From the NCBI GenBank assembly GCA_017461585.1, contig JAFTYM010000005.1:27909-91908 (forward strand): a DNA stretch of 64,000 nt, given 5' to 3'. Below, piece by piece: positions 5,801-23,294 of the stretch. The stretch's first letter is position 1. Each line of letters begins with the position of its first letter. The position numbers and the translations under genes are program-made. The notes below the pieces were generated by a model that worked only from the letters and a program-made list of their open reading frames with translations, did no database searches and was not told the DNA's origin. The stretch is from Oscillospiraceae bacterium (GTDB lineage Bacteria; Bacillota; Clostridia; Oscillospirales; Oscillospiraceae).

Positions 5801-8800
5801 GTTTAAGAGAACCGGTGTTACAAACGTTGAAATCGACGTTGCCGGTATCTCCTACAAAGCCGGTGTTGACGTTGTTCTGACTATCGACCTTTCAAACTCC
5901 ATGGCATGGGAAGTTGGTACAACCACAGATAATTTGAACAACAATAAACTGCATGCTGTTATGGCTGCTGTCAAGAATTTTGCTAATATCTTCCTCGCAG
6001 GTAATGTTGATGGCGCAACAAACAACAATACCATCACAATTGTTACTTTCGGTGGTTATGATGCAGATAACTTCAATCCTACAGACAGTTCTATGATAGA
6101 CGTAACGCGAACCCTTGTAAGCGCAACAGATGATTTAGATATTATTAATGCGATTTGCGATGGAACAAAGTTTACTGCTGTTGGTACTTATGAGCTGCAG
6201 CTTGCATATTATGATGAATCAACAGATACGGTTAAAACAGTAACTAACAATAACCGTGGTGACACAAACTACGACTTTGCATTTTGGCAGACTGAACAGG
6301 CTATTGATGCGGGAAATTTAGGTGCCGGAGACCGTGATGTATATGTTCTGTTTATGACAGACGGTTGTGCATCAAACTATAACGGCATTTACTATCGTAC
6401 ATCAACACCTGCTTTAATGCCCGGAACAGATACAAACTTCTCTGGTGATACTGATTATCGTACTGTGAACAACGGCGGTGAAGCTTGGACAGATTTGATC
6501 CTTGAGTCTATCGGTGAAAACGGCGGTAATATCTATGCAAAAAGACTTGTAAGCAAGGTAAAAGAAATCTATGCTATCGGATTTGATATGGCATACGGTT
6601 CTTTCAGCGGTATTAATGACTGGGATACAGATGGTATTGTATGGAGCGAAAGATTTAACGAAATTGTAAGCAAATCTATTATAGATGCAGATGGAAACGG
6701 TCTCATTGAGGTTACAGATGCAACAGATACAGATACACTCAATAATTTCTATACATCTCTTGCTTCTGAGCTTAAGCTTGCAGGTACAAACGCAGTAGTT
6801 CACGATACAGTTGGCAACAACTTCTCTGTACAGCTGGCAAGTTATGTTGTTGATAAAGATGGCAACAAGATTACTCTTACTATACCTCCCACTATTACCA
6901 TTAAAACATACGACCTCTATCCCGCTGGTTCAAAAGATGAAGACGGTAATGACATTACTGGTGATCGTACCGGAGTTTCTGAGAATGTTGAAATTGTAAG
7001 CTTCAACAACGAAGGCACAGAGGCATACTCAACACTCATTGATAACGGTGAGACCAATATCATGACAATTGCCGAAGACGGCGCTATTACCATCAATGCC
7101 AAGTACTTCACATATACAAAGACAAAGGACAGCGTTGAAAACTTTGTATGGCACATCGGAGATATTACCGACAAGGAAATTGCCCTTGCTTTCGGCGCAT
7201 ATCTCGACGGTGCAATGACAGGTGAACGTCCCGAGGACGTTTACTACACCAACGAAGAGGCAACTGTTGACTACATTGACGCATTTGGCAAGCATGCACA
7301 GCAGACCTTCCCTGTGCCCGGTGTTGCATGGGGCGGAGCTACAACAACAATCAGATTCTACCTTGTAAACCATAAGGGTGAACCTGTTAACCGTTATGGC
7401 GATGTTGTTCCCTGGGCTAACAGAGTTTACGTCGGTGAACCTGTTGTTGTATCTATCAACCTCAACCAGGATATGTCGATTGCTGCCCAGACGGTCGAGG
7501 CTGCTGCTCATGTTCCCTCCGGATTCTACTTGTACGATTATAATGCGTACTACACAATTCAGACGACATCAAACAATGATGCAATCACAGGTGGAATCTT
7601 CCCCTCCGAGCCCTCTGACGATGCAAAAAAGACAACCGGTACAGGCGATAATGTTGTAACTCAGACAGGTGCACAGACAACAAGAGTTATTGCGTATGAA
7701 GATCCGTACTACACATGGTCTTATGTCGGCTTTGGTGTTCGTTGGGATTTGACAGTTGAAAAGACACAGACTGTCCTCCAGCCTGATGCAGTAGTTATCG
7801 ACTACGGTAAGGCAGTACAGGTGGATGTTCTTGCAAATGACCCCGTTCGCGAGGGTTACACAAAAGAAATCGTTGGTTTTGTAAAGTATGACGCAAATGC
7901 TGATCTGACTATCGTTCAGCAGAATCCCGGCTCTGCAACATATACTGCAGATAATGGCACATTCTCAATTAAAGACGGTAAGGTACAGTTTGATCTGACA
8001 GGTCTTCTCTCTGAGGTACAGCGCGTATTCTACGTTGTTAAGTACACACCGACCGACGAGACACAGGCGCATAACTTCTACTACGTCTGGGGACAGCTGG
8101 ACATCATTCCCGCAACCATGATGTACTATGAGACAAACTTTGCAACAGGTGTATTTAATAACAATGGTTGGAATACAGAGGTTAATACGACATCAAATGA
8201 TAGTGCTGACGGTCCTCAGAACGCGGTAGCTATCGGCAGCTCTGATATTAAGAGCATTTACGGCTATGACTCTACATACACAAACGATGCAGGCTTATCC
8301 AACGCAACAAGCCTCTATGTAGAGGGTGAAGGTCTTGCAAGTACTTACACAACATTCACCTTTACAGGTACAGGCTTTGACATCATAAGCGGTACAGGTC
8401 CTGATCAGGGTCTTATCAAGGTCGTTGTTACAGATGCCAGCGGCAATGAAGTTAAGACGATATCCGTTCTTAACAAGAGCGAATCTGATCTTACTCTGTA
8501 TCAGATCCCCGTTGTTTCCGTAAATGGTCTTGACCACGGCACCTACACCGTAAAGATCGCTGTTGATAAGTCATTTACAAATACGACCGATAATGCAGCT
8601 CTTGATGTTCTGAACCGCGGCAACCAGTTCTTCTACGACGCTGTCCGTATCTACGATCCTATCGATGTTTCCGGCGGTGCAACAGCAGCCGAAGGTACCG
8701 ATGAAGCCGTAGCATTTGCCGCATACACCGCAGACGGCGAGGCGGATAATGAGATAAGCGAAGTTCGTGCAATGCTTATTGATGCAAATATGTTCGACGT

Positions 8801-9599
8801 TGAAGGTGACAACTCAGGTATCGTATTTGTTGACAAGATTAACGATGCAACAGGCACCGAAGGTGCGGATATAGCAACTTACGCTACAATCGGTCCCAAC
8901 AACGAGGTATACCTTGTCGGTGCTCAGGCAATCGGTTTCTACATTGATATTCCCGCAGACAACATTCCCGCTTCTATCCACATTGGTGCTAAGTCTGCTG
9001 ATGGAAAGCCCGTAGTACTGAGTGCAGTTGTTGATGATACAACAGTTTCGAATAGTGCAACATTTGAAATCAGCTCAAGCACATCGTTGTACTACGATAT
9101 TATGGGCGGTAATGTAGCAACAGGCGCGGATAAGCTGTATGTCTATGTTTCCAATGAAGGCGAAGGAATCCTTTCCATTACTGACATTAAAGTTGCTTAC
9201 GGCAGTGCTGGTACAGGTACTGTAAGCATTGGCTCTGATGCAGAGACACTTGAAAAGACAATTTCCAATGTTGAAAAGAGACTTGGAATTGTTCAGGAAG
9301 CTGCAAATTATGATGTAATTTCTGCAGAGTTTGCAGAGGAGTCAATTAAGAAAGGCAAAACAGCAACTCTTGTTATCACAACACCTGAAGCAGTTGAGTC
9401 CATTACTGTTACAAACAGCTTTGGCAGAACTGAGAATATTACTGTTGTAAGCACAGAACTTGTTGATGGTGTAAAGGTTTGGACAGTAACATTGAAGATA
9501 GCTGCTGTTGGTACAAAGACATTCTCGGCAACAGGTTACAGTGCAGACGGCCTTGCGGGTGCATCTGCAGATGCAACAATCCAAGTTACAATAAGATAA
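2835..9599 (+). CDS. Giant secreted multidomain surface protein (GH88/105-like, Ig-like, von Willebrand A)
   Basis: A 2254-residue exported protein. Residues 1-30 are a signal peptide ending SAMA. About 45-417 resemble GH88/GH105 unsaturated uronyl hydrolases (DLWLDGLYMILPFRAEY, GLFYH, YWLRSMGWYAAAM). About 418-505 and 879-956 look like Big_3 Ig folds, and about 784-872 is a Big_2 fold. Residues about 1009-1318 form a von Willebrand A domain with MIDAS motif DLSNS at 1018-1022 and MTDG near 1174. A VDVLANDP segment near 1655 and a probable jelly-roll region (about 1760-1945, ending FFYDAVRIYDP) follow, then a C-terminal Ig-like segment. No LPXTG, SLH or C-terminal anchor is visible, so attachment is unknown. 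Its stop overlaps the ribosome binding site of the small peptide gene. Glycan cleavage or adhesion is inference; catalytic residues were not verified. Confidence 0.85.
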   Translation: MNAKKFCTRAFTLMLVLFVVIGLMPISAMAVVEDSNLEKALSFIDGITVDNSSNDPSTVVSKFGTHFTWDNEKREEGKSYLFDWSYYNGVVFEGIEYLYEVTKDEKYADYVIEYMSSLIAEDGTWATCSNNSSKECAGYNSTHGADCYKTASLLLDAYEMTDDERYLTMAATLYADLDSAASKYSLKNAGNNYRHTWATDPSPDLWLDGLYMILPFRAEYAKYIGDTEELDLIVDRFQWVSDNMYNSSKGLFYHAADSASSNSGTYWLRSMGWYAAAMVDVMDSMDGENLEAMQAQFKKFVDGMKAVQNSSNGMWLNNMNASYSSSNPYETSGTSLVCYAIMKAVNNGWLDASYADMAVLAFNGICNEKLDGDTLTDICFKGAPGSSNSTFFDNEGKGVGPFIMFYAEVLEYVNSQTITGVEVTTEPTVKDYYIDEDAETITLDTAGLVVTATYKNGAKKTVSYNEGSTEKDGYALSMTLEEGVREQTVTVSYAGFEDTFTINVYELGYSYTESGVVIEPTAPGVTGVTVVDNSDDEAVAAALKNVVTSYVSYDINLDGYTQGDKVLVTLPIPEGTVNPVVYYVPDDGSAAVKLDAYIYDDVIVFVADHFSTYAVGDDMGTRATSAASVSGTGNLVGEATYKLDTDGVDNGAQYLIVNRGTDGTGYALRNNNGDATTATVTISNGYATFSNDNYASTSLWTFDADGEYWDIYNNARYIYLGNGSVLSTSQRDNLLVNENTNGSVVIRRDGSRRLYLNGTTYSSSNNSSTNFYLFKYTPGGNGEAVTFTVTPGSATIAPEGTTTLTGTVTVAGETVDLSDCTITWASSDSTKATVSGGTVTGVADGTANITATLSAVDGKALQNNIVLTVPVTVASKKIVGAELLGGPVEVATGKVPDYSGISVKVTYEDEDGDGDGETATFDYKNLQFGDVDTSVEGTHTVTVTYGEWEFELEVIVSAFGGLEPATTYPEYPNPGAVRVDKTATHNADEFKRTGVTNVEIDVAGISYKAGVDVVLTIDLSNSMAWEVGTTTDNLNNNKLHAVMAAVKNFANIFLAGNVDGATNNNTITIVTFGGYDADNFNPTDSSMIDVTRTLVSATDDLDIINAICDGTKFTAVGTYELQLAYYDESTDTVKTVTNNNRGDTNYDFAFWQTEQAIDAGNLGAGDRDVYVLFMTDGCASNYNGIYYRTSTPALMPGTDTNFSGDTDYRTVNNGGEAWTDLILESIGENGGNIYAKRLVSKVKEIYAIGFDMAYGSFSGINDWDTDGIVWSERFNEIVSKSIIDADGNGLIEVTDATDTDTLNNFYTSLASELKLAGTNAVVHDTVGNNFSVQLASYVVDKDGNKITLTIPPTITIKTYDLYPAGSKDEDGNDITGDRTGVSENVEIVSFNNEGTEAYSTLIDNGETNIMTIAEDGAITINAKYFTYTKTKDSVENFVWHIGDITDKEIALAFGAYLDGAMTGERPEDVYYTNEEATVDYIDAFGKHAQQTFPVPGVAWGGATTTIRFYLVNHKGEPVNRYGDVVPWANRVYVGEPVVVSINLNQDMSIAAQTVEAAAHVPSGFYLYDYNAYYTIQTTSNNDAITGGIFPSEPSDDAKKTTGTGDNVVTQTGAQTTRVIAYEDPYYTWSYVGFGVRWDLTVEKTQTVLQPDAVVIDYGKAVQVDVLANDPVREGYTKEIVGFVKYDANADLTIVQQNPGSATYTADNGTFSIKDGKVQFDLTGLLSEVQRVFYVVKYTPTDETQAHNFYYVWGQLDIIPATMMYYETNFATGVFNNNGWNTEVNTTSNDSADGPQNAVAIGSSDIKSIYGYDSTYTNDAGLSNATSLYVEGEGLASTYTTFTFTGTGFDIISGTGPDQGLIKVVVTDASGNEVKTISVLNKSESDLTLYQIPVVSVNGLDHGTYTVKIAVDKSFTNTTDNAALDVLNRGNQFFYDAVRIYDPIDVSGGATAAEGTDEAVAFAAYTADGEADNEISEVRAMLIDANMFDVEGDNSGIVFVDKINDATGTEGADIATYATIGPNNEVYLVGAQAIGFYIDIPADNIPASIHIGAKSADGKPVVLSAVVDDTTVSNSATFEISSSTSLYYDIMGGNVATGADKLYVYVSNEGEGILSITDIKVAYGSAGTGTVSIGSDAETLEKTISNVEKRLGIVQEAANYDVISAEFAEESIKKGKTATLVITTPEAVESITVTNSFGRTENITVVSTELVDGVKVWTVTLKIAAVGTKTFSATGYSADGLAGASADATIQVTIR

Positions 9600-9612
9600 G
9601 GAGGAATCTACA

Positions 9613-9870
9613 ATGAAAAAGTCTTATAACAAGCCCTATATAGCTGTGGAATTCTTCCAGCTTGATGCTGCAATTGCTTCCGCTTGCTCACGAAATAACA
9701 AAATAGCGCTGAACTTTGGTATTAACAGATGCACTTTGGAAGAAGAAGTGCCCGAGCTTGGATATTTCGGAAATGCGTGTGATCACAACATAAACGTTCC
9801 CGGCGGTGACGGTAATGATGAGATTTGTTATCACGGACCGCAGTTTGCCGACATATTCATGGAGTCCTAA
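9613..9870 (+). CDS. Small cysteine-containing peptide, candidate RiPP precursor
   Basis: An 85-residue peptide whose ribosome binding site AAGGAGG (9598-9604) overlaps the stop codon of the giant protein. The N terminus MKKSYNKPYIAVEFFQLD followed by an alanine-rich AAIASAC resembles a leader with a recognition helix and a possible processing site, rather than a secretion signal. Cysteines fall at 25, 40, 56 and 72, spaced 15, 16 and 16 residues. The C-terminal half is acidic and Gly/Asn/Asp-rich (VPGGDGNDE). Downstream lie an HPr-kinase-like protein, a radical SAM/SPASM enzyme and a PqqD-like carrier, the usual partners of a modified peptide. The precursor role is inferred from size, composition and context; I do not recognise a named family. 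Confidence 0.6.
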   Translation: MKKSYNKPYIAVEFFQLDAAIASACSRNNKIALNFGINRCTLEEEVPELGYFGNACDHNINVPGGDGNDEICYHGPQFADIFMES

Positions 9871-9884
9871 ACAATAATTAAACG

Positions 9885-9912
9885 AACGGGGGCGTCTGCT
9901 GATGCCCCCGTT
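9885..9912 (+). terminator. Strong GC hairpin after the small peptide gene
   Basis: A nine-bp stem, AACGGGGGC (9885-9893) with GCCCCCGTT (9904-9912), lies between the peptide gene and the HPr-kinase-like gene. The T tract behind it is weak (GCTGTTAG). It may act as a leaky terminator or 3' stabilising stem, giving more peptide mRNA than enzyme mRNA. Confidence 0.6.
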
Positions 9913-9945
9913 GCTGTTAGAACACTCAGGAAAGGGGGAGAACCT

Positions 9946-10800
9946 GTGGCAAAGTTCCTTATTGGAGATGTCCTGCTGGAAATCGATTACAGCAGTATGC
10001 CTGTTGAAGGCGGAGAAAATTTGGACAAGTTTTCATATAACGCTGTTTGGCATGGAGAAAAGCTGACACTTCAAACGGAATTTAAAGAGCTTGATTTCAG
10101 TGGTGCCGAACTTAAAGTCGGCGACAACCGAGTTTGCGAAGTGTACAAAGTCGGGAACGAAAACATGCTTGTATACCATTGGGGAAACCTTTTTCGTGGG
10201 TTTGCTGTGTGGCCGGAAAGATTTGCGGTCACATATTCGCCCGAGATGCGAGGGCAGCCGGCACTGCGTGAGGACTGGTTTTTCAGCATAATTTCATTTC
10301 ACAGGCAAATGCTCCTTCGCGGAGGATGTGTTTTTCACGCGTCTTACATTGACATAGGCGACAAAGCGGTGCTGTTTACGGCTCCGTCCAATACGGGCAA
10401 ATCTACGCAGGCTGATCTGTGGTGCAGATTTGCAGACGCTGAGGTCATAAATGGCGACCGAGTGCTTTTAAAACAGAAAAACGGTGTTTGGTGCGCTTAC
10501 GGATACCCAAGCTGCGGCACATCGGGTATCTGTCAAAACCGCACGCTTCCTGTTGCGGCTATCGTAGTGTTGGAGCAGGGGCAGGAAAACAAAATCGTGC
10601 AGCTTACTGCTGCACAGAAAATACGCGCGCTTGTGTCTGCCACGGAGGTATATCTGTGGGATCAGACGGAAATTGACAAGGCATTTGAAATCGCGGGGAA
10701 CATTATTGCGGATGTTCCCGTCATAAAACTGTCGTGCAGACCCGATGAGGATGCTGTGAGAGTTTTGCAAAGTTTTCTGGAGGAAAGCATCGATGTATAA
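9946..10800 (+). CDS. HPr kinase/PEP-carboxykinase-like P-loop protein of a peptide-modification cassette
   Basis: A 284-residue cytoplasmic protein. A Walker A motif, TAPSNTGKST at about 145-154, follows a conserved CVFHASYI stretch and precedes EVINGDRVLL, the arrangement of HPr kinase/phosphorylase-related proteins. It lacks the normal HprK N-terminal domain and is not next to HPr genes. Homologous kinases occur in lasso-peptide and radical-SAM peptide cassettes, where some phosphorylate a serine of the peptide. The start is GTG 9946 behind AAAGGGGGAG. Its stop overlaps the radical SAM gene by 8 bases, indicating translational coupling. Phosphorylation of the 85-residue peptide (its last residue is Ser85) is a hypothesis. 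Confidence 0.75.
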   Translation: MAKFLIGDVLLEIDYSSMPVEGGENLDKFSYNAVWHGEKLTLQTEFKELDFSGAELKVGDNRVCEVYKVGNENMLVYHWGNLFRGFAVWPERFAVTYSPEMRGQPALREDWFFSIISFHRQMLLRGGCVFHASYIDIGDKAVLFTAPSNTGKSTQADLWCRFADAEVINGDRVLLKQKNGVWCAYGYPSCGTSGICQNRTLPVAAIVVLEQGQENKIVQLTAAQKIRALVSATEVYLWDQTEIDKAFEIAGNIIADVPVIKLSCRPDEDAVRVLQSFLEESIDV

Positions 10801-11902
10801 CTTATCTGATTATCTTCACAGCAAAGCATCCCGAAATAAAGTCCCTCTGTCGGGAACATTTGAGCTTTCTCCCGTGTGCAACTTTGCGTGTAAAATGTGC
10901 TATGTTCGCAGAACACCGGAACAGATAAAAAATGACGGAAAAGAGATAATCACGTGGGACAAGTGGTTAGAGCTTGCAAAGCAATGCAGGGATGCGGGCA
11001 CGCTTTATCTGCTGCTTACGGGCGGAGAACCCTTTCTGTATCCCGGTTTTAAGGAGCTTTATACAGAGCTTCACAAAATGGGATTTATTTTATACATAAA
11101 TTCCAATGGTACGCTTATAGACGAAGCTGCTGTTGAGTGGCTGAAAAAGTACGCACCGGGACGCGTAAATGTTACGCTTTACGGTGCATCTCCCGAGACT
11201 TATGAGAGGATATGCGGAAATCCCAAGGGCTTTGAACTGGCGATGGACGCAATCAAAATGCTTACAGAGGCTAAGATACCTGTGGTAATTAATGCCAGCA
11301 TGATCCCTGAAAATGAGTGTGATCTCGAAAAAATTATCGAGATAGGCAAAAGCTTGGGACTAAATACGAGAATGAGCACATATATGTTTCCTCCGATGCG
11401 CCGCGAAAGAGAAGATTGTGATTCCCGTTTTACGGCAGAACAATCGGCGCAAATGTATATGCGTAAAATAAAATGTCTGTATTCAAAAGAGGAATATTTT
11501 GAATTTCTTGAGAGAAATGCCAAAGGGAATACAGAGGAAGATAACGACGAAACATGGGGAACAGACACAGAGTTCATGCGCTGCAGAGCAGGACGCAGTT
11601 CGTTTTGGGTGAATTGGGAAGGAAATATGACCGCGTGCGGAATGATGGATTTTCCTATGAAAACCACACCCTTTACGGAAAATTTTTGCGACTGCTGGAT
11701 GAAGCTTACGGACAGCGTCAGAAATGCGCATGTTCTTAAAGGCTGTGCCGGATGCAAAAAACGCAATAATTGCAATCCCTGTGTTGCTATGATATACGGC
11801 GAAACAGGTACTGTAGATGAAAAAGCACCGTATATGTGCAGATTATCGGAGTGCGTTTCGGAGATTATAAAGAAGGAACTGGAGGAGCTGCGAGATGAGT
11901 AG
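10793..11902 (+). CDS. Radical SAM/SPASM domain protein
   Basis: A 369-residue enzyme with the radical SAM cluster motif CNFACKMC (Cys29, Cys33, Cys36) after FELSPV, and LLTGGEPFLYPGF in the SAM-binding region. The C-terminal third carries a cysteine-rich SPASM region beginning with FMRCRAG near 264, continuing with TACGMM, CAGCKKRNNCNPCVA and YMCRLSEC, which would bind auxiliary [4Fe-4S] clusters. Such enzymes install thioether, carbon-carbon or epimerised residues in ribosomal peptides. GGAGG lies nine bases before the ATG. It overlaps the kinase-like gene upstream and the next gene downstream by 8 bases each. The substrate is inferred to be the neighbouring 85-residue peptide. Confidence 0.9.
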   Translation: MYNLSDYLHSKASRNKVPLSGTFELSPVCNFACKMCYVRRTPEQIKNDGKEIITWDKWLELAKQCRDAGTLYLLLTGGEPFLYPGFKELYTELHKMGFILYINSNGTLIDEAAVEWLKKYAPGRVNVTLYGASPETYERICGNPKGFELAMDAIKMLTEAKIPVVINASMIPENECDLEKIIEIGKSLGLNTRMSTYMFPPMRREREDCDSRFTAEQSAQMYMRKIKCLYSKEEYFEFLERNAKGNTEEDNDETWGTDTEFMRCRAGRSSFWVNWEGNMTACGMMDFPMKTTPFTENFCDCWMKLTDSVRNAHVLKGCAGCKKRNNCNPCVAMIYGETGTVDEKAPYMCRLSECVSEIIKKELEELRDE

Positions 11903-12836
11903 AGGAAGACATGTTAAGAATAAAACGGTAGATAAAATGTTTATAGCTATTGTTGCGGCTCTTATTATTGTAGTTGCAATACTGCTGATAGTGCTGCGTG
12001 CAAACGCCAACAGACCTGATGACGATGCTGCAGGCGGCAATATAACGGCATCGGGAAATACAGACGGAGTTGGTTCTGATATTACAGACTCACCTGAAAA
12101 TGGTGACACCGACAGCGGTGCGGATTCAAATGTTGAAAGCAGCGTCGGTGCCGGAAATACAGGCGGCAATACTGAAACAGAAAGCGGAAATTCAAACGCA
12201 AATACCGGTAATTCAAACGCAGATACCGGTAATGGAAATAGCAGCACAGGCGGAAACACCGGAAACGGCAATAATAACACCAGCGGAAATAACAACGATA
12301 ACAACAATAACAGCAACAACGACAACAACAGCAATGACAACAACGACAACGGCAGCAATAACGATGGTGATGCCGATGACGGTGATGAAGAAAATGATAA
12401 CAGCGGGAATACAACAGGCGGCGGAGATATAACGGTATCACAGCCTAATATTGAGATCACCGAAAGAGCAGATGCGGATTATGAGCAGTGGCTTGCTGCG
12501 ACTATGGTTGTATGTATTTCCATGGAGTATCCCGATTTTGAGCTTGACGGAATTTATACTGCATCTGAGACATCTTTTGAGAATAAATTCAGCAGCGATG
12601 GTACATATATCGTATTCACAAGCGGCGGAAAGACAATGGCTGTACACAGCGTTGCGTTAAGCGGCGAGAGAACAGCGTCAGGCACGAGAGATATTTCGTC
12701 TCAGACATTGGGATTTGCAACTTTTGACGTTGTAAGTCCTTCAAGCGTAAACACATCAAGTATGACAGAAATCTCTGTTGATGATCTTGATGAGCTTATA
12801 GAGCAATCACTTTTAATATCTGTTTATACACATTGA
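11895..12836 (+). CDS. Membrane-anchored protein with Asn/Asp/Ser-rich stalk, unknown function
   Basis: A 313-residue protein with a basic N terminus (MSRGRHVKNK), one membrane helix at about residues 16-36, then a roughly 150-residue low-complexity linker of Asn, Asp, Ser, Thr and Gly (about 40-185), and a folded C-terminal domain of about 125 residues (from NIEITERADADYEQW to LLISVYTH). The topology suggests the C-terminal domain lies outside the cell. I do not recognise the domain. It starts inside the end of the radical SAM gene (8-base overlap, GGAGGAG upstream) and precedes the PqqD gene, so it belongs to the cassette. It could be a partner, receptor or immunity-like factor; no function can be assigned. 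Confidence 0.75.
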   Translation: MSRGRHVKNKTVDKMFIAIVAALIIVVAILLIVLRANANRPDDDAAGGNITASGNTDGVGSDITDSPENGDTDSGADSNVESSVGAGNTGGNTETESGNSNANTGNSNADTGNGNSSTGGNTGNGNNNTSGNNNDNNNNSNNDNNSNDNNDNGSNNDGDADDGDEENDNSGNTTGGGDITVSQPNIEITERADADYEQWLAATMVVCISMEYPDFELDGIYTASETSFENKFSSDGTYIVFTSGGKTMAVHSVALSGERTASGTRDISSQTLGFATFDVVSPSSVNTSSMTEISVDDLDELIEQSLLISVYTH

Positions 12837-12846
12837 GGCGAAAGAT

Positions 12847-13110
12847 ATGAAGCTTAAATATGAATTTGTCGTTAGAGAGATCATGGGAGAGTATGTTCTT
12901 GTGCCGTCAGGGGAAGCGGCGCTGACATTCGGCGGCATGATAACAACAAGCGAGGTCGGAGCATTTCTTATAGATGTGCTGAAAGATGAAGTGACAAAAG
13001 AAGAAATGGCAGACAGGCTTATGGCTGAATATGATGTGGACATTGATACTGCAAATGCAGATATTGATGAGTTCTTGTCAAAGCTGGATCAGCTCGGAAT
13101 AATTGAATAG
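12847..13110 (+). CDS. PqqD-like peptide-binding (RRE) protein
   Basis: An 87-residue protein with the PqqD fold signature: three short beta strands (FVVREIMGEYVLVP, MITTSEVGAFLIDVL) followed by a helical region (TKEEMADRLMAEYDVD, ANADIDEFLSKLDQLGIIE). PqqD-family proteins are RiPP recognition elements that bind the leader of a precursor peptide and hand it to the radical SAM enzyme. GAGGCG sits seven bases before the ATG and overlaps the stop of the preceding gene. It is the last gene before a strong terminator, so the giant protein, peptide, kinase-like, radical SAM, membrane protein and PqqD genes form one transcription unit, apart from the internal hairpin at 9885. Confidence 0.88.
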   Translation: MKLKYEFVVREIMGEYVLVPSGEAALTFGGMITTSEVGAFLIDVLKDEVTKEEMADRLMAEYDVDIDTANADIDEFLSKLDQLGIIE

Positions 13111-13114
13111 AGTA

Positions 13115-13147
13115 AAAATAACACCTGTAATCAACAGGTGTTATTTT
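13115..13147 (+). terminator. Intrinsic terminator after the PqqD-like gene
   Basis: A 14-bp perfect stem (13115-13128 with 13134-13147) with a five-base loop, rich in A on the left and T on the right. Confidence 0.9.
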
Positions 13148-13171
13148 ATTATCAAATTATCTCAAAGATAC

Positions 13172-13199
13172 TTGAGATTTGACGATAATTTGATATAAT
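13172..13199 (+). promoter_or_regulatory. Candidate promoter for the sugar transferase gene
   Basis: TTGAGA (13172-13177), 16-base spacer, TATAAT (13194-13199). A TTGACG at 13179 is too close to be the -35 element. The site lies directly after the terminator, so a new transcript probably starts here. Confidence 0.55.
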
Positions 13200-13236
13200 A
13201 ACATGTTGAGAAAGATTTGCTTGATGAGGTTAAACA

Positions 13237-13866
13237 ATGTACCGACGATTTTTTAAAAGATTCTTTGATATAATCGTTTCTGCAGTAATACTTTTGATAC
13301 TGATAGTACCTATGTTAGTGTTTGCGCTTATAATAAAGCTGGATTCACCGGGACCTGTCATATTTTGGCAGAAGCGCATAGGAATACATAAATCAACATT
13401 TTTAATGCCGAAGTTCAGAACGATGTATTATGACACACCGAAAGAGGTGCCGACTCATCTTCTGGATAATCCCGACAGGTGGATAACAAGGTGCGGCAGG
13501 TGGATGCGCAAAATGTCCATTGATGAGCTTCCGCAGATGATCTGCATTCTTACGGGCAAGATGAGTATCGTAGGTCCAAGACCTGCGCTGTGGAATCAGG
13601 ACGACCTTGTAGAAGAACGCGACAAATACGGCGCAAACGATATACGTCCCGGACTTACAGGCTGGGCGCAGATAAACGGACGCGACGAACTGGAAATAGA
13701 AGAGAAAGCCCGTCTGGACGGATACTATGCCGAAAACTACGGCCTGCGTTTGGATTTAAAATGCTTTTTTTATACTTTTATTTCTGTTGCAAAGCATGAC
13801 GGATACCTTGAAGGTGGTACAGGGAGTGCTGAAAATAAGATGCCGGAACACACGACCGGAGAATGA
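13237..13866 (+). CDS. Undecaprenyl-phosphate sugar phosphotransferase (bacterial sugar transferase, PglC-like)
   Basis: A 209-residue monotopic membrane enzyme that moves a phosphosugar from a UDP-sugar to undecaprenyl phosphate, the first membrane step of polysaccharide repeat-unit assembly. One hydrophobic segment (about 9-34) is followed by the catalytic region: KLDSPGPVIFWQKRIG, KFRTMYYDT, SIDELPQ with the Asp-Glu dyad, GKMSIVGPRPAL and RPGLTGWAQINGRDE. The length corresponds to the minimal PglC-type enzyme, without the extra WbaP/WcaJ membrane domain. GATGAGGT lies six bases before the ATG. Its TGA overlaps the first possible ATG of the next gene. The sugar is not predictable. Confidence 0.93.
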   Translation: MYRRFFKRFFDIIVSAVILLILIVPMLVFALIIKLDSPGPVIFWQKRIGIHKSTFLMPKFRTMYYDTPKEVPTHLLDNPDRWITRCGRWMRKMSIDELPQMICILTGKMSIVGPRPALWNQDDLVEERDKYGANDIRPGLTGWAQINGRDELEIEEKARLDGYYAENYGLRLDLKCFFYTFISVAKHDGYLEGGTGSAENKMPEHTTGE

Positions 13867-13868
13867 AT

Positions 13869-15104
13869 ATGATAAACAAACTTTTTTTAGAGGCTTTACA
13901 AGCCTCTTTAAAAATTGAAAAAGTTAAATGGGAACACGATATATCAAGTGAGAACTGGCAAGAGCTTTTTGCTCTGGCAGAAGCACAGCACGTTCTGCCC
14001 ATGATATACGATGCTGTGTACTCCTGTCCTGCTGCAAAGAAATCCGACCCAAAGTTTTTTTCTGCAATCAAGGGACGTGTGTATAAAAAGGTAATGCTGC
14101 AGGCGATGAAGACGGAAGAGTTTTTAAAACTGTACGGCCATTTGGTGAAGAACGGCATCAGACCTATTCTGGTGAAAGGACTCATTTGCAGACAGCTTTA
14201 TCCAAATCCTGATTACAGAAGCTCGTCTGATGAAGACCTTTTGGTAAGCGCTGATGAGTTTGTGGCTTGCCATAAAGCCTTGCTGGAATACGGAATGACG
14301 GCAGATCCTGAGAAGTCTGACGTTGAAAACTATGATGAGATCGCGTATCGGAAAGAGGGAAGTCCTTTATACATAGAGCTGCACCGCAGCCTGTTTGCTG
14401 AAAAGTCAGAGGCTTACGGTGATTTCAACAGATTTTTTAAAGCTGCACACCAAGAGACGGTAACTGTCAGCGTGAGTGGTACAGACATAAACACAATGAG
14501 CCATACGCTGCATCTGCTGTATCTTATCCTTCACGCTTTCAAACACTTTTTGCACGGTGGTGTAGGTATAAGGCAGGTTTGCGATATCTCACTCTATGCC
14601 AATGAATACGGCAGATATATCGATTGGGCAGATGTTACCGATAAGTGTGCAGAGGTGCGTGCCGATAAGTTTGCTTTTGCGCTTATAAAAATCGGAAAGA
14701 GCTGTTTTGAACTCTCAGCAGAAAAATCATGCTGTCATGCGGCAATTTATAATACGGATATTGACGAGACTTATCTGTTGGAAGATATTTTGAGCGGCGG
14801 AGTGTACGGTGGAGCAACTAAAGGAAGAAAGCACAGCAGTAATGTGACGCTTAATGCCGTTTCCTCACAGAAAAAGGGAAATGCAGTTCGCGGAAGTGTA
14901 ATTCGGACTTTGCTGCCGTCTGTTAAAAAGCTGTCAGGTAAGTATAAATACCTTGAAAAGTACCCGTTTTTACTTCCCGTGGCATGGTATGACAGAATAG
15001 TCGGATATATCAAAGAGTCTAGGAGAGAGGGCGGAGTATCAGAAGCTGCAAAGATAGGTAAAGACCGAATTGAGCTTCTTAAAATTTATAATGTAATAGA
15101 TTAA
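13869..15104 (+). CDS. Nucleotidyltransferase-like protein (NTP_transf_5 family)
   Basis: About 411 residues. The stretch RPILVKGLICRQLYPNP followed by RSSSDEDLLV is the Lys-Gly...Asp-x-Asp-like signature of the uncharacterised nucleotidyltransferase family PF14907; HTLHLLYLILHAFKHFLHGGVGIRQVCDI is a second family landmark. Members recur in lasso-peptide and other RiPP cassettes with HPr-kinase-like and PqqD-like proteins, and also in capsule loci. An ATG at 13863 overlaps the previous stop as ATGA but is one base from GGAG (13858-13861); ATG 13869 has a seven-base gap, so I prefer it. The substrate is unknown: a peptide or a sugar intermediate are both possible. Confidence 0.8.
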   Translation: MINKLFLEALQASLKIEKVKWEHDISSENWQELFALAEAQHVLPMIYDAVYSCPAAKKSDPKFFSAIKGRVYKKVMLQAMKTEEFLKLYGHLVKNGIRPILVKGLICRQLYPNPDYRSSSDEDLLVSADEFVACHKALLEYGMTADPEKSDVENYDEIAYRKEGSPLYIELHRSLFAEKSEAYGDFNRFFKAAHQETVTVSVSGTDINTMSHTLHLLYLILHAFKHFLHGGVGIRQVCDISLYANEYGRYIDWADVTDKCAEVRADKFAFALIKIGKSCFELSAEKSCCHAAIYNTDIDETYLLEDILSGGVYGGATKGRKHSSNVTLNAVSSQKKGNAVRGSVIRTLLPSVKKLSGKYKYLEKYPFLLPVAWYDRIVGYIKESRREGGVSEAAKIGKDRIELLKIYNVID

Positions 15105-15131
15105 AAGCTCCGTGAAACGGGGCTTTTAATG
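15103..15131 (+). terminator. Intrinsic terminator after the nucleotidyltransferase-like gene
   Basis: Stem 15103-15113 with 15117-15127 (11 bp including one G-T pair), three-base loop and a 3' TTTTAAT. Confidence 0.8.
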
Positions 15132-15168
15132 CTTATCGTCGATGGCAAACGGCAGAAAATTCATCACG

Positions 15169-15197
15169 TTGACAGTAAGAATTGTATGTGATATTCT
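15169..15197 (+). promoter_or_regulatory. Sigma-A promoter for the ABC exporter operon
   Basis: TTGACA (15169-15174), 17-base spacer, TATTCT (15192-15197). The predicted start site near 15204 lies downstream of an in-frame TTG at 15182, which argues that translation starts at ATG 15281. Confidence 0.75.
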
Positions 15198-15280
15198 TAT
15201 TTAATAACTGTTTTTATAATAGTATAACTGTGCGTATTTTTACGCCTGAAGAGAATTTTAAGAGTTGTGAGAGTTCGGAT

Positions 15281-16993
15281 ATGAAGGTTTTCGATTCGAT
15301 AAAAAAACAATTCTATAATGAAGATCCGAAGCAGCTTAAGTATGAGCTGAGCTGGCTGTGGAAGCGTGTGAAGCAGTATAAGATTATGGTTTTTATGGTG
15401 GGACTGCTTGGCCTTGCCGGTACTGTTATGTCCCTTGCCTCCAGCGTCACTTCCAAGTATCTTATAGACGCTGTAACAGCGCTTGATGGCGACAAACTGC
15501 TGATTGCTGCAGTTGTTATGGCGGTAATGTTGCTGGGCAGTATTGCCCTGCAGGCTGTTTCGTCCCGCACGGGTGCGACAGTTCATGTTAAAGTTAAAAA
15601 TCAGATGCAGCAAAAAACATACGGGTGCATTCTCCATGCAAAATGGGAGTCTTTGGAAGGCTTTCGCAACGGAGACCTTATCAGCAGACTTAACTCTGAT
15701 ATTAATGCAGTATCTGACAGCATAATAGGGTTCATTCCCAATTTTGTGACGGCTTCCGTTAAGTTTGCAGGTGCGTTCGGCATTATGCTGTTTTACGACC
15801 CTGTAATGGCGCTGATAGCACTTTTGGGTGCACCTGTTACTATGGTGATGTCCAAAATATTAATGCGCAAGCTGCGTGACCATAACCGTCATATGAAGGA
15901 ACTGAGCGGTGAGATAATGTCTTTTCAGGAGGATTCTTTCAGAAACCTCACCAGCATCAAGGCGTTTTCCGTTACAGGATATTATGAGGACGAGATGGGC
16001 AGACTTCACGGCACTTATGAGAATGCATATCTCTCCTTCAATTCGTTCCAAATCAAGATTTCCACAGTAATGTCGCTTGTGGGGGTTGTGGTGACTACAG
16101 CCTGCTTCGGTTGGGGCATTTACAGACTGTGGACAGGTCACATTACATACGGCTCGCTGACGCTGTTTCTGCAGCTTGCATCAACTCTGCGCGGAGCATT
16201 TTCCTCCCTTGTGTCAATGGCGCAGCAGGCGATATCAATTACAACTTCTGCAGGCAGAATAATCGCTGTTGAAGATCTTGCAAAAGAAGATGCAAGCGTA
16301 CCCGAAGGCTTTAAAGACGAAGCTGAGCTTTCTGTATTGCTTGAAAACGTCTCTTTCAGATATCAGAGCGGAGAGACGGTTCTGGAGACATTTGATTTTG
16401 CGGCGTATCCCGGAGATCAGATAGCCATTACAGGGCCTTCCGGTGAGGGCAAAACCACACTTCTTAGAATACTGCTTGGCCTTGTTGATCCTGTGGAGGG
16501 AAAGGCGGAACTTGCAGGTAAAAACAGATATACCGTTTCAGCCGGTACAAGAGGGGCATTTGCGTATGTACCTCAGGGCAACAGCATATTTACGGGCACA
16601 GTTGCGCAAAATCTTCGCATAGTAAAGCCAGATGCATCTGATGAGGAGATTGAAGCTGCGCTGAAGACCGCGTGCGCATGGGAGTTTGTAAGCAGCTTTG
16701 CTGACGGTACAGAGCACATGCTGGGTGCGGGAGGAAGAGGTATTTCCGAAGGACAGGCTCAACGAATCGCCATAGCACGTGCGCTTCTGAGAAAAGCGCC
16801 CATACTGCTGCTTGATGAAGCCACTTCAGGCTTGGATATAGAGACCGAAAAGAAGCTTATGAGCAATCTGAAAGAGAGCGGTATGGTGCATACATGCATA
16901 CTGGTAACTCACAGACCTGAAAGCACCCGGTACTGCAACCGCGCGTATGAGGTTCAGGGCGGCAGCGTTAGAGAGGTTCACCATGGAGCATAA
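15281..16993 (+). CDS. ABC transporter with fused permease and ATPase domains
   Basis: A 570-residue half-transporter. Residues about 20-310 hold the six-helix ABC exporter membrane domain; the ATPase follows with Walker A GPSGEGKTT, signature ISEGQAQR (a variant of LSGGQ), and Walker B ILLLDEATSGLD. There is no N-terminal C39 peptidase domain, so it does not cleave leaders itself. I chose ATG 15281 because the promoter at 15169-15197 would place an earlier TTG outside the transcript. It overlaps the next gene, an S24/S26-type peptidase, by 11 bases. Together they could export and process the modified peptide; export of a lipid-linked or other substrate cannot be excluded. Confidence 0.9.
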   Translation: MKVFDSIKKQFYNEDPKQLKYELSWLWKRVKQYKIMVFMVGLLGLAGTVMSLASSVTSKYLIDAVTALDGDKLLIAAVVMAVMLLGSIALQAVSSRTGATVHVKVKNQMQQKTYGCILHAKWESLEGFRNGDLISRLNSDINAVSDSIIGFIPNFVTASVKFAGAFGIMLFYDPVMALIALLGAPVTMVMSKILMRKLRDHNRHMKELSGEIMSFQEDSFRNLTSIKAFSVTGYYEDEMGRLHGTYENAYLSFNSFQIKISTVMSLVGVVVTTACFGWGIYRLWTGHITYGSLTLFLQLASTLRGAFSSLVSMAQQAISITTSAGRIIAVEDLAKEDASVPEGFKDEAELSVLLENVSFRYQSGETVLETFDFAAYPGDQIAITGPSGEGKTTLLRILLGLVDPVEGKAELAGKNRYTVSAGTRGAFAYVPQGNSIFTGTVAQNLRIVKPDASDEEIEAALKTACAWEFVSSFADGTEHMLGAGGRGISEGQAQRIAIARALLRKAPILLLDEATSGLDIETEKKLMSNLKESGMVHTCILVTHRPESTRYCNRAYEVQGGSVREVHHGA

Positions 16994-17438
16994 TGTTAAA
17001 GTAGTGCCTTCAGATGTGATGACTGAACATATCTGTGAGCTTCTTGAGGAAACTGATAACGTTCCGCTGGTTATAAGCGGCAGCAGCATGTCTCCGTTTT
17101 TGGTGCACGGCAGAGATACTGTGTATTTATCAAAAATCAGAAGCACGGTTAAACGCGGAAATATGATCTTTTACAGAAGAGATAACGGAAAGGTCATACT
17201 TCACCGTGTTATTAAAGTGAAAGAAAACGGCTGCGACATGGTCGGCGATGCTCAGACTGTCATAGAGCCGAATGTCAGTTATGACAATATGATAGCCGTT
17301 GTAACGGCGGTCACAAGAAAAGGCAAGCTGCTGAAACGCAGCAGCATTTGCTGGCTGTTTTTTGAAAAACTGTGGATCAGAATGATAAAACTCAGACCTT
17401 TTATTGTAAAGGTTTATACTAAACTTGTCGGTAGATGA
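16983..17438 (+). CDS. S24/S26-family peptidase, signal-peptidase-like
   Basis: A 151-residue protein with the signal peptidase box ISGSSMSPFL (probable nucleophile Ser35), HGRDTVYL, RGNMIFYRR and VILHRVIKV. In the position where type I signal peptidases use Lys, the visible candidate is His74 of the LHRV motif, as in SipW/archaeal-type enzymes; Lys70 lies close by. GDAQT follows. No clear membrane helix is present, unlike housekeeping SipS/LepB, so it may act at the membrane face or inside the cell. GAGAGG lies six bases before the ATG, within the end of the ABC gene. Similar small peptidases accompany ABC transporters in RiPP cassettes; leader removal is inferred. Confidence 0.8.
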   Translation: MEHNVKVVPSDVMTEHICELLEETDNVPLVISGSSMSPFLVHGRDTVYLSKIRSTVKRGNMIFYRRDNGKVILHRVIKVKENGCDMVGDAQTVIEPNVSYDNMIAVVTAVTRKGKLLKRSSICWLFFEKLWIRMIKLRPFIVKVYTKLVGR

Positions 17439-17462: not shown

Positions 17463-18191
17463 ATGATAGATATGCATTGTCATATTTTGCCCGGAGTTGA
17501 TGATGGGTCAAGTGATCTTCAAGACTCTGTTGAAATGGCGCGTCTGGCTGCGGAGAGCGGCGTTGTCGGCATAGTGGCAACGCCTCATTGTGCAGGCGAC
17601 GGGGCTGATATGATGCGTAAGAGTTTTTCTCTTTTGCGTGAAGTTATTAAGGATGAGAAGATACCTGTTGAGCTGTTTTTGGGTATGGAAATATTCGGAA
17701 CATGGGCAACAGCAGAGCTTTTGAAGGAAGGCAGGCTGTTTACGCTTAACGGATCTGATTATCCTCTTATAGAGTTTGATTTTCACGCAGACGGTAATGA
17801 ATGTGTGAGAATACTGCGCGAAGTATCGCGTGAGGGATACAGACCTGTTGTTGCCCACCCGGAACGATATGATTTTATTGCGAGAGATCCCGGACTTATA
17901 AAGACTATGTGCGATATGGGCTGCCTGCTTCAGATCAACAGAGGAAGCTTACTCGGCAGATTCGGAAAGAAAGCGCAGAGTCTGGCGTTTATGCTGGTTG
18001 AGCGTGATCTGGCAGCGATGGTGGCTAGTGATGCACACTCATCTGCGGTAAGAACAACGTGGATGAGAGACGTGAAAGAATTGCTGGAAAGAGAGTTTTC
18101 TGCTGAAACTGCGGAAAAACTGCTTGTTGCAAATCCGCTAAGTATTCTGAAAAACGAAAAACTTGTATATGAGCCGAAATGGTTTAAATAA
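17463..18191 (+). CDS. CpsB/CapC-type PHP-fold tyrosine-protein phosphatase
   Basis: A 242-residue metal-dependent phosphatase of the PHP superfamily that dephosphorylates BY-kinases and so controls polymer length and export. Metal ligands are visible in MHCHILPGVDDGS, ATPHCAGDG, EIFGTW, AHPERYDF and ASDAHSS. It is 24 bases after the peptidase gene and precedes an Ig-like membrane protein and two BY-kinase genes on the same strand, the usual phosphatase-kinase grouping of Wzy-type capsule loci. Confidence 0.92.
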   Translation: MIDMHCHILPGVDDGSSDLQDSVEMARLAAESGVVGIVATPHCAGDGADMMRKSFSLLREVIKDEKIPVELFLGMEIFGTWATAELLKEGRLFTLNGSDYPLIEFDFHADGNECVRILREVSREGYRPVVAHPERYDFIARDPGLIKTMCDMGCLLQINRGSLLGRFGKKAQSLAFMLVERDLAAMVASDAHSSAVRTTWMRDVKELLEREFSAETAEKLLVANPLSILKNEKLVYEPKWFK

Positions 18192-18206
18192 AGAGGCGAA
18201 CTGCTT

Positions 18207-19043
18207 ATGAAAAACAAAAAGTGGGTATATCCGCTGCTGATAATTCTGTGTCTTGCTGTTTTTGCGGGATATAAACTGATAGTCAGCGCGGCGACGGATA
18301 CAAAGGCGCCTGTTATCAGCGCTTTAGGAGACATACAGGTTGAGGTGGCGGCTGACTACAGCGCATTCCTCACAGGTGTTTCCGCTTCTGACAACAGAGA
18401 CGGTGATGTTACAGGAAGTATAGTTGTTGAGAAAGTTGAACTGCTTGACAGCGACGGAACCATATCTGTAACTTACGCAGCGTTTGACAGCGCAGGCAAT
18501 GTTGCAAAAACTGAGCGTACGGGAATGTACACAGACTATGAAAGCCCGAGATTTACTCTCAGCGCTCCTCTTGCGTTCAGCTCTTCAAACTTTGACGTTT
18601 TAAAAATCGTAGGCGCTACAGACAAGATCGACGGCAATATCCAGCACCGTGTAAGAGCAACTCTGATGGATGATGCTTCCATAACATCAATGGGTGTACA
18701 CGATGTTCAGTTCCGCGTAACAAACTCGTTGGGTGATGCTGTTGAGATCATTTTGCCTGTAGAGGTCTACTCCGGAAGCGGATATAACGCAAAGCTTACG
18801 CTTACGGACTATCTCATCTATCTGCCTGTTGGTGCGGATTTTGACGAGGACGATTATCTTAATGCCATGGTTTGCTACGGCGAAGAGGTGGCTTTGAGCG
18901 GAGAAAACAGAAATAAGTACAGCGTGCATACCAACGGATATGTCGATACGGATACTCCGGGGGTTTACACAATTTCGTACGAAGTGGTATATAATCAGAT
19001 TTATATTGGTTATTCAAAACTGATAGTAGTGGTGGAAGGATAG
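18207..19043 (+). CDS. Membrane-anchored protein with Ig-like DUF5011-type domains
   Basis: A 278-residue protein with a short basic N terminus (MKNKKWVYP) and one hydrophobic helix that acts as signal anchor. The extracytoplasmic part begins with TDTKAPVISALGDIQVEV and SDNRDGDVTGSI, the hallmark of DUF5011/HYR-like Ig folds, followed by a second repeat (ATDKIDGNIQHRV) and a third beta-rich region ending TPGVYTISYEV. No catalytic motif is visible. Placed between the phosphatase and kinase genes, with 15 and 4 base gaps, it is probably an accessory factor of the polysaccharide export machinery or a surface protein. Function is not known. Confidence 0.75.
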   Translation: MKNKKWVYPLLIILCLAVFAGYKLIVSAATDTKAPVISALGDIQVEVAADYSAFLTGVSASDNRDGDVTGSIVVEKVELLDSDGTISVTYAAFDSAGNVAKTERTGMYTDYESPRFTLSAPLAFSSSNFDVLKIVGATDKIDGNIQHRVRATLMDDASITSMGVHDVQFRVTNSLGDAVEIILPVEVYSGSGYNAKLTLTDYLIYLPVGADFDEDDYLNAMVCYGEEVALSGENRNKYSVHTNGYVDTDTPGVYTISYEVVYNQIYIGYSKLIVVVEG

Positions 19044-19047
19044 AAAT

Positions 19048-20511: not shown

Positions 20512-20524
20512 GAAAGGTCTAACA

Positions 20525-22850: not shown

Positions 22851-22862
22851 GGAGAAATTTTT

Positions 22863-23294
22863 ATGGAAAAGAAACTCATACTTGAAGTTCACGTAACTAT
22901 TGACCCTAAAGATATTTCTGCCCTCAGCGGTCCTGCGGGCGATGTTGTTATGATACCATTCGGAGGAACTGTAACAGGTGAGATATTCAACGGCGTGGTA
23001 AGACCGGGCGGTGTTGATGTACAGCGCACAAATCTCTCAAAGATTCGCCACATGGGCGCAAGATATATGCTGGAGGGAACAGACTCAGCAGGTGAGAAGT
23101 GCATGATTTTCGTAGACAACAACGGCTGGTTTGACGATGAGCTTCCTCAGAGTGAAGGTGAATTCAAAACTGTACCCACCTTTATTACAAACAGCAAAAC
23201 TCTGGCGCCTTATCTCCATCAGAACAAATTCATCGGCATCGGAACTCCTGCCGAAGGCGGCGTGCTCATCAGCATGTACGAGGTAATTGAGTAA
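22863..23294 (+). CDS. DUF3237 domain-containing protein
   Basis: A 143-residue soluble protein matching the DUF3237 pattern: a beta-rich chain with IPFGGTVTGEIFNGVVRPGGVDVQ, ARYMLEGTDSAGEKCMIFVDNNGW and a C-terminal IGIGTPAEGGVLISMYEV. Members are small beta-barrel proteins without assigned activity. AAGGAGA precedes the ATG. It is cotranscribed with the MBL-fold hydrolase, which suggests a shared small-molecule substrate, but this is inference. Confidence 0.8.
   Translation: MEKKLILEVHVTIDPKDISALSGPAGDVVMIPFGGTVTGEIFNGVVRPGGVDVQRTNLSKIRHMGARYMLEGTDSAGEKCMIFVDNNGWFDDELPQSEGEFKTVPTFITNSKTLAPYLHQNKFIGIGTPAEGGVLISMYEVIE

What the first reader, a model, noticed from the sequence alone, without database searches (positions are those of the whole stretch)
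9613..17438. RiPP-like peptide-modification cassette built into an exopolysaccharide locus
Within 8 kb lie a small Cys peptide, an HPr-kinase-like protein, a radical SAM/SPASM enzyme, an Asn/Asp-rich membrane protein, a PqqD-like carrier, an NTP_transf_5 protein, an ABC exporter without protease domain and an S24/S26 peptidase. Four of these overlap or abut. Small precursor, HprK-like, PqqD-like and radical SAM genes resemble the SynChlorMet type of cassette, and HprK/nucleotidyltransferase pairs resemble some lasso clusters, but the mix with a phosphosugar transferase, a CpsB phosphatase and two tyrosine kinases is not one I know. It suggests a modified peptide tied to the cell surface or polysaccharide.
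Basis: partly seen in the sequence, partly recalled or inferred. Interest (0 to 1): 0.85.

Follow-up and report, generated by a model that had tools for sequence, protein, structure and literature searches.

The report
Surface-protein-linked modified-peptide cassette
Inside its capsule gene cluster this gut bacterium carries a small cysteine-rich peptide gene right behind a giant surface protein, with enzymes that probably cross-link the peptide and put a phosphate on its last amino acid; the set recurs in relatives and may be a new way to build cell-surface peptides.

Summary
The genes are there as described; relatives show more. (1) The 85-aa peptide (PEP) has a conserved N-terminus, usually four Cys, and a nearly invariant C-terminal Ser: 53 of 59 complete homologues, against 29 of 399 control ORFs. 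C-terminal Ser is what HPr-kinase homologues of lasso clusters phosphorylate, and an HprK-like gene lies beside 54 of 62 relatives of the radical SAM gene. (2) PEP follows a giant secreted protein, typically by 12-20 nt; these proteins differ at the N-terminus (GH88, GH53, GH20, VWA) but share an unnamed C-terminal module. (3) In 400 genomes of the family all 32 with the module have PEP, and 31 of 34 with PEP have the enzyme. At gene level module and PEP are not strictly paired. (4) The capsule setting recurs only in some loci. Best reading: a radical-SAM-modified, C-terminally phosphorylated, here perhaps glycosylated peptide made as partner of a large surface protein. It is neither lasso nor SynChlorMet. 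The chemistry and the physical links to surface protein and capsule are inferred, not shown.

The parts
2835..9599 (+). Giant secreted surface protein (2254 aa): N-terminal signal-like stretch (read by eye), GH88 domain (res. 81-411), Big_2, C-terminal module (res. ~1640-2120)
   Evidence: ends 13 nt before the peptide gene
7752..9194 (+). C-terminal module shared by otherwise different surface proteins that precede PEP genes; no Pfam family; beta-sandwich model
9613..9870 (+). PEP: precursor-like peptide, 85 aa, 4 Cys (25, 40, 56, 72), conserved N-terminal motif, C-terminal Ser85; Shine-Dalgarno-like aaggagg at 9598-9604
9881..9918 (+). RNA hairpin just behind PEP (12-bp core stem 9885-9912, MFE -26.3, z -3.7): possible attenuator or stabiliser between the surface-protein-PEP unit and the enzyme genes
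   Evidence: z below -2 in 45 of 59 PEP 3' flanks; 11 of 62 RSAM and 4 of 56 HPRK 3' flanks
9946..10800 (+). HPRK: HprK/PEPCK-type kinase; H131, P-loop 147-154 and D171 align with Lactobacillus casei HprK/P
10793..11902 (+). RSAM: radical SAM enzyme with CX3CX2C (C29, C33, C36) and 7 SPASM-like C-terminal Cys
11895..12836 (+). MEMB: N-terminal TM, Asn/Asp-rich linker, small C-terminal domain; TM+linker proteins recur in other cassettes
12847..13110 (+). PQQD: PqqD-like leader-binding carrier
13237..13866 (+). Polyprenyl glycosylphosphotransferase (Bac_transf), capsule priming enzyme
13863..15104 (+). NTP_transf_5 nucleotidyltransferase, candidate phosphate-glycosylating enzyme
   Evidence: near 10 of 62 RSAM genes
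15281..16993 (+). ABC exporter without peptidase domain (ORF opens at TTG 15182; ATG 15281 judged the likelier start)
16983..17438 (+). S26-type signal-peptidase-like protein, below model cut-offs (ORF opens at 16947; ATG 16983 judged the likelier start)
17463..21925 (+). CpsB phosphatase, Ig-like surface protein, two Wzz/AAA_31 proteins (CpsC-CpsD-like tyrosine kinases; Wzz part just below cut-off)

Best explanation
The locus makes a ribosomal peptide (PEP) in step with a giant secreted surface protein. PqqD presents PEP to the radical SAM enzyme, which installs cross-links at the Cys-rich core; [quoted passage not shown] where NTP_transf_5 is present, as here, the phosphate is extended with sugar. 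The ABC exporter and the signal-peptidase-like protein export and trim the product, which is displayed near the surface protein and the membrane-tethered MEMB protein and works as a small partner. Shown here: gene content, co-occurrence, the C-terminal Ser, the kinase type, the shared module, the hairpin. Inferred: every chemical step, export, and any contact with surface protein or capsule.
For: C-terminal Ser in 53 of 59 complete PEPs (29 of 399 control ORFs, 7.3%), majority Ser in 39 of 44 clusters at 50% identity. HprK/PEPCK structures are the first matches of the kinase model, and H131, P-loop and D171 are kept; kinase gene within 3 kb of 54 of 62 RSAM genes. [quoted passage not shown] PEP shares genomes with RSAM (31) and with module (32): Fisher 7.8e-37 and 2.9e-45. 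Module ORF less than 300 nt upstream of 40 of 60 PEPs; in genus g79, where ten PEPs lie on other contigs than the one RSAM found, all ten follow their own large protein. Hairpins behind PEP. PEP distances follow module distances after correction for RSAM and HPRK (partial r 0.30, 1 of 2000 permutations).
Against: 13 of 18 further module ORFs have no adjacent PEP. 24 of 62 RSAM genes have no PEP within 3 kb; NTP_transf_5 and ABC are near only 10 and 13 of 62. Six complete PEPs do not end in Ser; three of these six (L129, L130, L139) have an HPRK gene in the locus, so Ser does not simply track the kinase. The kinase model's TM-scores to the L. casei HprK/P chains are modest (about 0.3 by query, 0.45-0.56 by target) and the profile match is weak (E 0.027). 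At least three of the large proteins before PEPs have SLH domains and so an anchor of their own. Linked inheritance can give the correlation without contact. No mass spectrometry or expression data.
Confidence: 0.55

Rival explanations
1. PEP is an ordinary secreted RiPP (bacteriocin or signal) with a radical SAM maturase; the surface protein is only a co-regulated neighbour.
For: ABC exporter, peptidase-like gene and PqqD beside RSAM are usual in secreted RiPP clusters (usual: recalled); the peptides vary strongly (median pairwise identity 0.33); 13 of 18 further module ORFs have no PEP beside them.
Against: An ABC exporter is within 9 kb on the same strand of only 13 of 62 RSAM genes in the stretches held; in genus g79 each of ten PEPs away from the maturase follows its own large protein.
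Confidence: 0.25
2. The peptide has a regulatory or chaperone role for the surface protein inside the cell, and the HprK homologue acts on it as a switch, not as a biosynthetic tailoring kinase.
For: HprK proper is a regulatory kinase (recalled); spacing of 12-20 nt in 22 of 37 cases suggests tight co-expression.
Against: Usually four Cys, PqqD and a SPASM-like radical SAM enzyme point to irreversible maturation; kinase homologues with C-terminal Ser substrates are known from RiPP clusters.
Confidence: 0.12
3. The capsule setting in this window is incidental: the cassette landed in an EPS locus (not exclusive of the other readings).
For: CpsD-type genes lie within 9 kb of only 6 of 62 RSAM genes; the second cassette of the same genome has none in the stretch (L054), and both CpsD-type matches of this genome are those of the window.
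Against: The 16 genomes have 1-5 CpsD-type matches each, usually with a tandem pair; besides the loci that I already knew, they lie within 20 kb of the cassette in 3 of the 10 genomes not picked for it (G143, G049, G594), where my rough density estimate is about 0.5.
Confidence: 0.35

Closest known systems
Paeninodin / pseudomycoidin-type lasso clusters (kinase K, nucleotidyltransferase N)
   Same: HPr-kinase homologue, nucleotidyltransferase, exporter, precursor ending in Ser (PMC8498205, passages); PqqD-like proteins (NCBIfam lasso PqqD models are the nearest to PQQD, below cut-off)
   Different: No match to the cyclase family PF00733 or to PF13471 in this genome (79% complete); a radical SAM enzyme instead; precursor is Cys-rich and tied to a surface protein
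SynChlorMet cassette (ScmC-F)
   Same: HprK-like ScmC is the only NCBIfam hit of HPRK; ScmD, ScmE, ScmF are weak hits of PQQD and RSAM
   Different: All far below cut-off (32.5/125, 13.3/100, 70.3/400, 56.3/400 bits); one radical SAM gene, not two
Sactipeptide / streptide radical SAM maturases (SkfB, SuiB)
   Same: Closest solved structures to RSAM by sequence: SkfB 6.9e-29; 5v1q 1.5e-17, named only 'Radical SAM' in the output and recalled as SuiB
   Different: Separate PqqD gene, companion kinase, other precursor, surface-protein partner
L. casei HprK/P and PEP carboxykinase
   Same: Among the first structural matches of the HPRK model; same P-loop, His and Asp
   Different: 16-19% identity to the best HprK/P chains, modest TM-scores, RiPP-like gene context

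Membership tests
SynChlorMet | ScmC/D/E/F models above curated cut-off | tested here: not met
SynChlorMet | two radical SAM genes (ScmE, ScmF) in the cassette | tested here: not met
   one here; two of this family only in L035 and L157 of 60 loci
Phosphorylated lasso peptides | Asn-synthase-like cyclase (PF00733) | tested here: not met
   0 matches in own genome, 11 of 14 controls ring; genome 79% complete, but the locus lies inside a contig
Phosphorylated lasso peptides | lasso leader peptidase (PF13471) | tested here: not met
   0 matches in own genome; 2 of 14 controls ring
Phosphorylated lasso peptides | HprK homologue plus precursor ending in Ser | tested here: met
   (says 'works like', not membership)
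RiPP (general) | encoded precursor beside modifying enzymes and a leader-binding protein | tested here: met
RiPP (general) | post-translational modification of the peptide | not testable with these tools
   needs mass spectrometry
Radical SAM/SPASM peptide maturases | CX3CX2C and C-terminal auxiliary-cluster Cys | tested here: met
   C33, C36 and 7 C-terminal Cys invariant in 26 of 26, C29 in at least 90%
Wzy-type capsule locus | glycosyltransferases, priming transferase, CpsB, CpsC/D-like proteins | tested here: met
   polymerase and flippase not identified
Known precursor families (NCBIfam, Pfam) | PEP matches a model | tested here: not met
   19 members: none in Pfam at E 0.01; in NCBIfam at E 0.1 only two chance-level hits, 0.094 and 0.095

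The most novel reading that the evidence does not exclude
PEP is a ribosomally made, radical-SAM-stapled linker: its phosphorylated C-terminal Ser is the glycan attachment point, and its cross-linked core binds the shared C-terminal module, so that giant surface enzymes and adhesins are tethered to, or decorated with, surface polysaccharide. This would be a new kind of protein-polysaccharide connection. (Lowered from 0.12 in my draft to 0.10 because three of the proteins prove to have SLH domains of their own.)
Probability: 0.1. Interest if true: 0.95.

Novelty: new variant of a known kind. Interest (0 to 1): 0.72.

Why it matters
It would extend C-terminal Ser phosphorylation (and perhaps phospho-glycosylation) from lasso peptides to a radical-SAM peptide class, and would tie RiPP chemistry to giant surface enzymes and adhesins of gut Clostridia. 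The peptide family has no model in Pfam or NCBIfam, was found in 16 of 106 sampled genera of the family (weak hits included) and gives a directly testable set of genes.

Tried and rejected
Rejected: SynChlorMet, lasso. Asked whether module and PEP are strictly paired: no. I fetched 18 module matches, nearly all of them matches outside the loci already held: 13 have no PEP beside them (one of these, L221, is the protein of L170, whose PEP lies elsewhere in the locus), 3 run off the contig, 1 has only 165 nt behind it, 1 is followed by a PEP fragment at a contig end. An apparent absence of HPRK in many loci was an ORF-picking artefact; stop-to-stop frames found it. Loss of the terminal Ser does not track loss of HPRK: L052 (no HPRK found, ends SF) fits, L129, L130 and L139 (HPRK present) do not. 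Fold search of the module gave low TM-scores (0.25 or less in the 50 rows shown) over assorted beta-sandwich proteins, so no function is read from it. Limits: searches scored at most four first-look candidates a genome, about 13, so match counts are lower bounds. Literature searches found no paper; others listed 3, 1, 1, 3 and 12, and from titles and abstract starts none describes a radical SAM + HprK + PqqD peptide cassette; preprints and most papers of subscription journals are not held. Papers seen: PMC8498205 and PMC4289311, passages only; the others, listing and start of abstract only.
Full report
What is there. The window lies at C13:27909-91908 of a 2.07-Mb, 79% complete draft genome. 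Upstream in the same direction run about 17.7 kb of genes; of 20 ORFs picked I scanned ten, which include four glycosyltransferases, a Branch-type transferase, UDP-sugar dehydrogenase, epimerase, acetyltransferase and pyruvyl transferase; one (504 aa) had no match. At the window's start are an FrhB_C protein and a UDP-GlcNAc 2-epimerase. Downstream are Bac_transf, CpsB, an Ig-like surface protein and two Wzz/AAA_31 proteins. So the cassette does sit inside a capsule locus.

The unit is larger than reported. The gene before the peptide (2835-9599, 2254 aa, GH88 domain, signal-like N-terminus) ends 13 nt before it. I collected relatives of the radical SAM gene from family genomes and named records and drew gene maps of 79 loci. 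The order surface protein - PEP - HPRK - RSAM - MEMB - PQQD recurs in L033 and L034 and, cut by the contig end, in L031; L032 shows HPRK to PQQD. Of 60 PEP ORFs, 37 have a gene of 600 aa or more ending within 250 nt upstream on the same strand, 32 of them within 50 nt and 22 at 12-20 nt; in the same 79 maps 106 of 878 picked ORFs are that long. By an HMM, 40 of 60 have an ORF with the shared module less than 300 nt upstream, 6 have it elsewhere in the locus, 14 not in the stretch. One of the 6 (L147) is in truth adjacent, its start having been misplaced by the script; two of the 14 (L053, L157) hold pieces of the module in the adjacent ORF; two more of the 14 (L031, L166) start within 500 nt of a contig end.

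The shared module. The large proteins have unlike N-terminal parts: of ten scanned, GH88, GH53, GH20 (two), VWA (three, two below the Pfam cut-off), PA14/MG3-like below cut-off, SdrD_B, and one Cna_B/CHAP/LPXTG protein that lacks the module. Three more have SLH domains, one of these with ricin-type lectin and PA14 domains and one with an endonuclease I domain. By BLAST 28 of the other 99 ORFs of 600 aa or more in these loci match the window protein, all 28 in its C-terminal part. The stretch 1640-2120 has no Pfam model. An AlphaFold2 model (pLDDT 81.9) is a chain of beta-sandwich domains; fold search gave only weak matches. The assembly holds two copies, each before a PEP. In 400 family genomes 32 have the module, and all 32 are among the 34 with PEP (Fisher 2.9e-45). 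But the pairing is not strict at gene level: of 18 further module regions, nearly all taken because they lay outside the loci held, 13 have no PEP beside them.

The peptide. In 19 aligned homologues M1, Y5, P8, C25, C56 and the C-terminal Ser are invariant columns (L052 has one residue after that Ser). In the larger set 53 of 59 complete peptides end in Ser, 30 of the 53 with Phe two places before it; 29 of 399 other ORFs (150 aa or more) of the same loci end in Ser. Reduced to 44 clusters at 50% identity, 39 are mostly Ser (58 peptides, L152 left out). 38 of 58 have four Cys and 46 of 58 a Cys-Tyr or Cys-Phe pair near the C-terminus. The six exceptions are L052 (SF), L129 and L139 (SY), L130 and L138 (SA), and L152 (W), which is doubtful; L129, L130 and L139 have a kinase gene in the locus. 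No Pfam model at E 0.01 and no NCBIfam model beyond chance matches any of the 19.

The kinase. HPRK matches HprK/P of L. casei (1jb1) weakly by profile (E 0.027); H131, G151, K152 and D171, aligned to that structure, are invariant among 18 relatives. The model (pLDDT 93.5) finds HprK/P and PEP carboxykinase structures first, with modest TM-scores. [quoted passage not shown] The meeting of such a kinase with a peptide family that keeps its last Ser while most of the rest varies is the main argument for the mechanism.

Co-occurrence. Of 400 family genomes 34 have PEP (E up to 0.01; G005 and G037 weak), 37 RSAM (E up to 1e-60); 31 have both (Fisher 7.8e-37; the three searches show the same draw of handles). 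PEP without RSAM: G005, G124, G549. RSAM without PEP: G024, G096, G587, G682, G759, G785. Fisher's test ignores kinship, but within the window's own genus PEP and module go together (both in G000 and G060, neither in G141, G587, G633). In a class-wide sample PEP is rare: 5 of 391 genomes, of which two belong to the family, two are weak and one (G443) is strong. Near 62 RSAM genes in 60 loci: HPRK 54, PQQD 41, PEP 38, MEMB-type by HMM 12 (within 3 kb, same strand); ABC 13, NTP_transf_5 10, S24/S26 10 (9 kb, same strand); module 31, CpsD 6, g278 (Ig-like protein) 4, CpsB 2, Bac_transf 2 (9 kb, either strand). By eye on a crude filter about 25 of the 60 loci have a small protein with an N-terminal TM and a polar linker, of which MEMB is one type. 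In genus g79 (G640, G676, G709, G740, G766) ten PEPs lie on other contigs than the one RSAM found, each behind its own large protein; another member, G596, has the usual cassette. The surface protein-PEP pair is thus more constant than the place of the enzymes.

Expression. Directly behind PEP stands a strong RNA hairpin in 45 of 59 cases (z below -2), against 11 of 62 for RSAM and 4 of 56 for HPRK (mononucleotide shuffles). In the window it spans 9881-9918. A partial terminator there would let surface protein and PEP be made in excess over the enzymes; this is inference.

Capsule link. CpsD-type genes give 1-5 matches in each of 16 genomes. They lie within 9 kb of RSAM in the window, L048, L050, L051, L055 and L168, and near a PEP without RSAM in L138. 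Among the 10 genomes that I had not picked for this they lie within 20 kb in three (G143, G049, G594; about 9, 12 and 18 kb from RSAM). I estimate about 0.5 by density, but most cassettes have no capsule genes beside them. The tie is real as neighbourhood in some lineages and unproven as function.

Coevolution. For 30 loci with all four parts, PEP distances correlate with module distances after removing RSAM and HPRK distances (partial r 0.30, 1 of 2000 permutations), about as strongly as with RSAM (0.27, 0 of 2000); with HPRK 0.15 (p 0.056). Linkage could cause part of this.

Verdict. A real, conserved gene set: a radical-SAM peptide cassette with a probable C-terminal Ser kinase, tied to a peptide made with giant surface proteins; the peptide and the module are unnamed in the libraries searched. 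It works like phosphorylated lasso systems in one step (kinase, sometimes nucleotidyltransferase) but is not one of them, and it is not SynChlorMet. I file it as a new variant of a known kind (RiPP-type cassette); if the peptide proves to join surface protein and glycan, it would be a new kind.

Noticed in passing
L054 (own genome C54:14000-33500): A second cassette in the same genome: 2555-aa surface protein with module, PEP, TM+linker protein, HPRK, RSAM, PQQD, without capsule genes in the stretch.
   Followed up: partly
L168:10280-11146 and L174:11383-12270: A 288/295-aa TM protein between PQQD and NTP_transf_5, in L168 a calcineurin-like phosphoesterase by Pfam, in L174 similar by eye; could act on the phosphate of the peptide.
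   Followed up: no
L035, L157: Two radical SAM genes of the family in one cassette.
   Followed up: no
L050, L051: Shorter PEPs (64 and 60 aa, 'ELRPEERLA.C'-like start) that also end in Ser, in cassettes beside CpsD-type genes and without the surface-protein module in the stretch.
   Followed up: partly
L040, L155: Cassettes where the large protein lies downstream after an S24/S26-type gene; in L040 it has Cna_B, CHAP and an LPXTG anchor and no module.
   Followed up: no
L126, L133, L143: Large proteins before PEPs that carry both the module and three SLH repeats.
   Followed up: partly
window 22032-23294: Metallo-beta-lactamase-fold protein and DUF3237 protein behind the capsule genes, apparently unrelated.
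   Followed up: no
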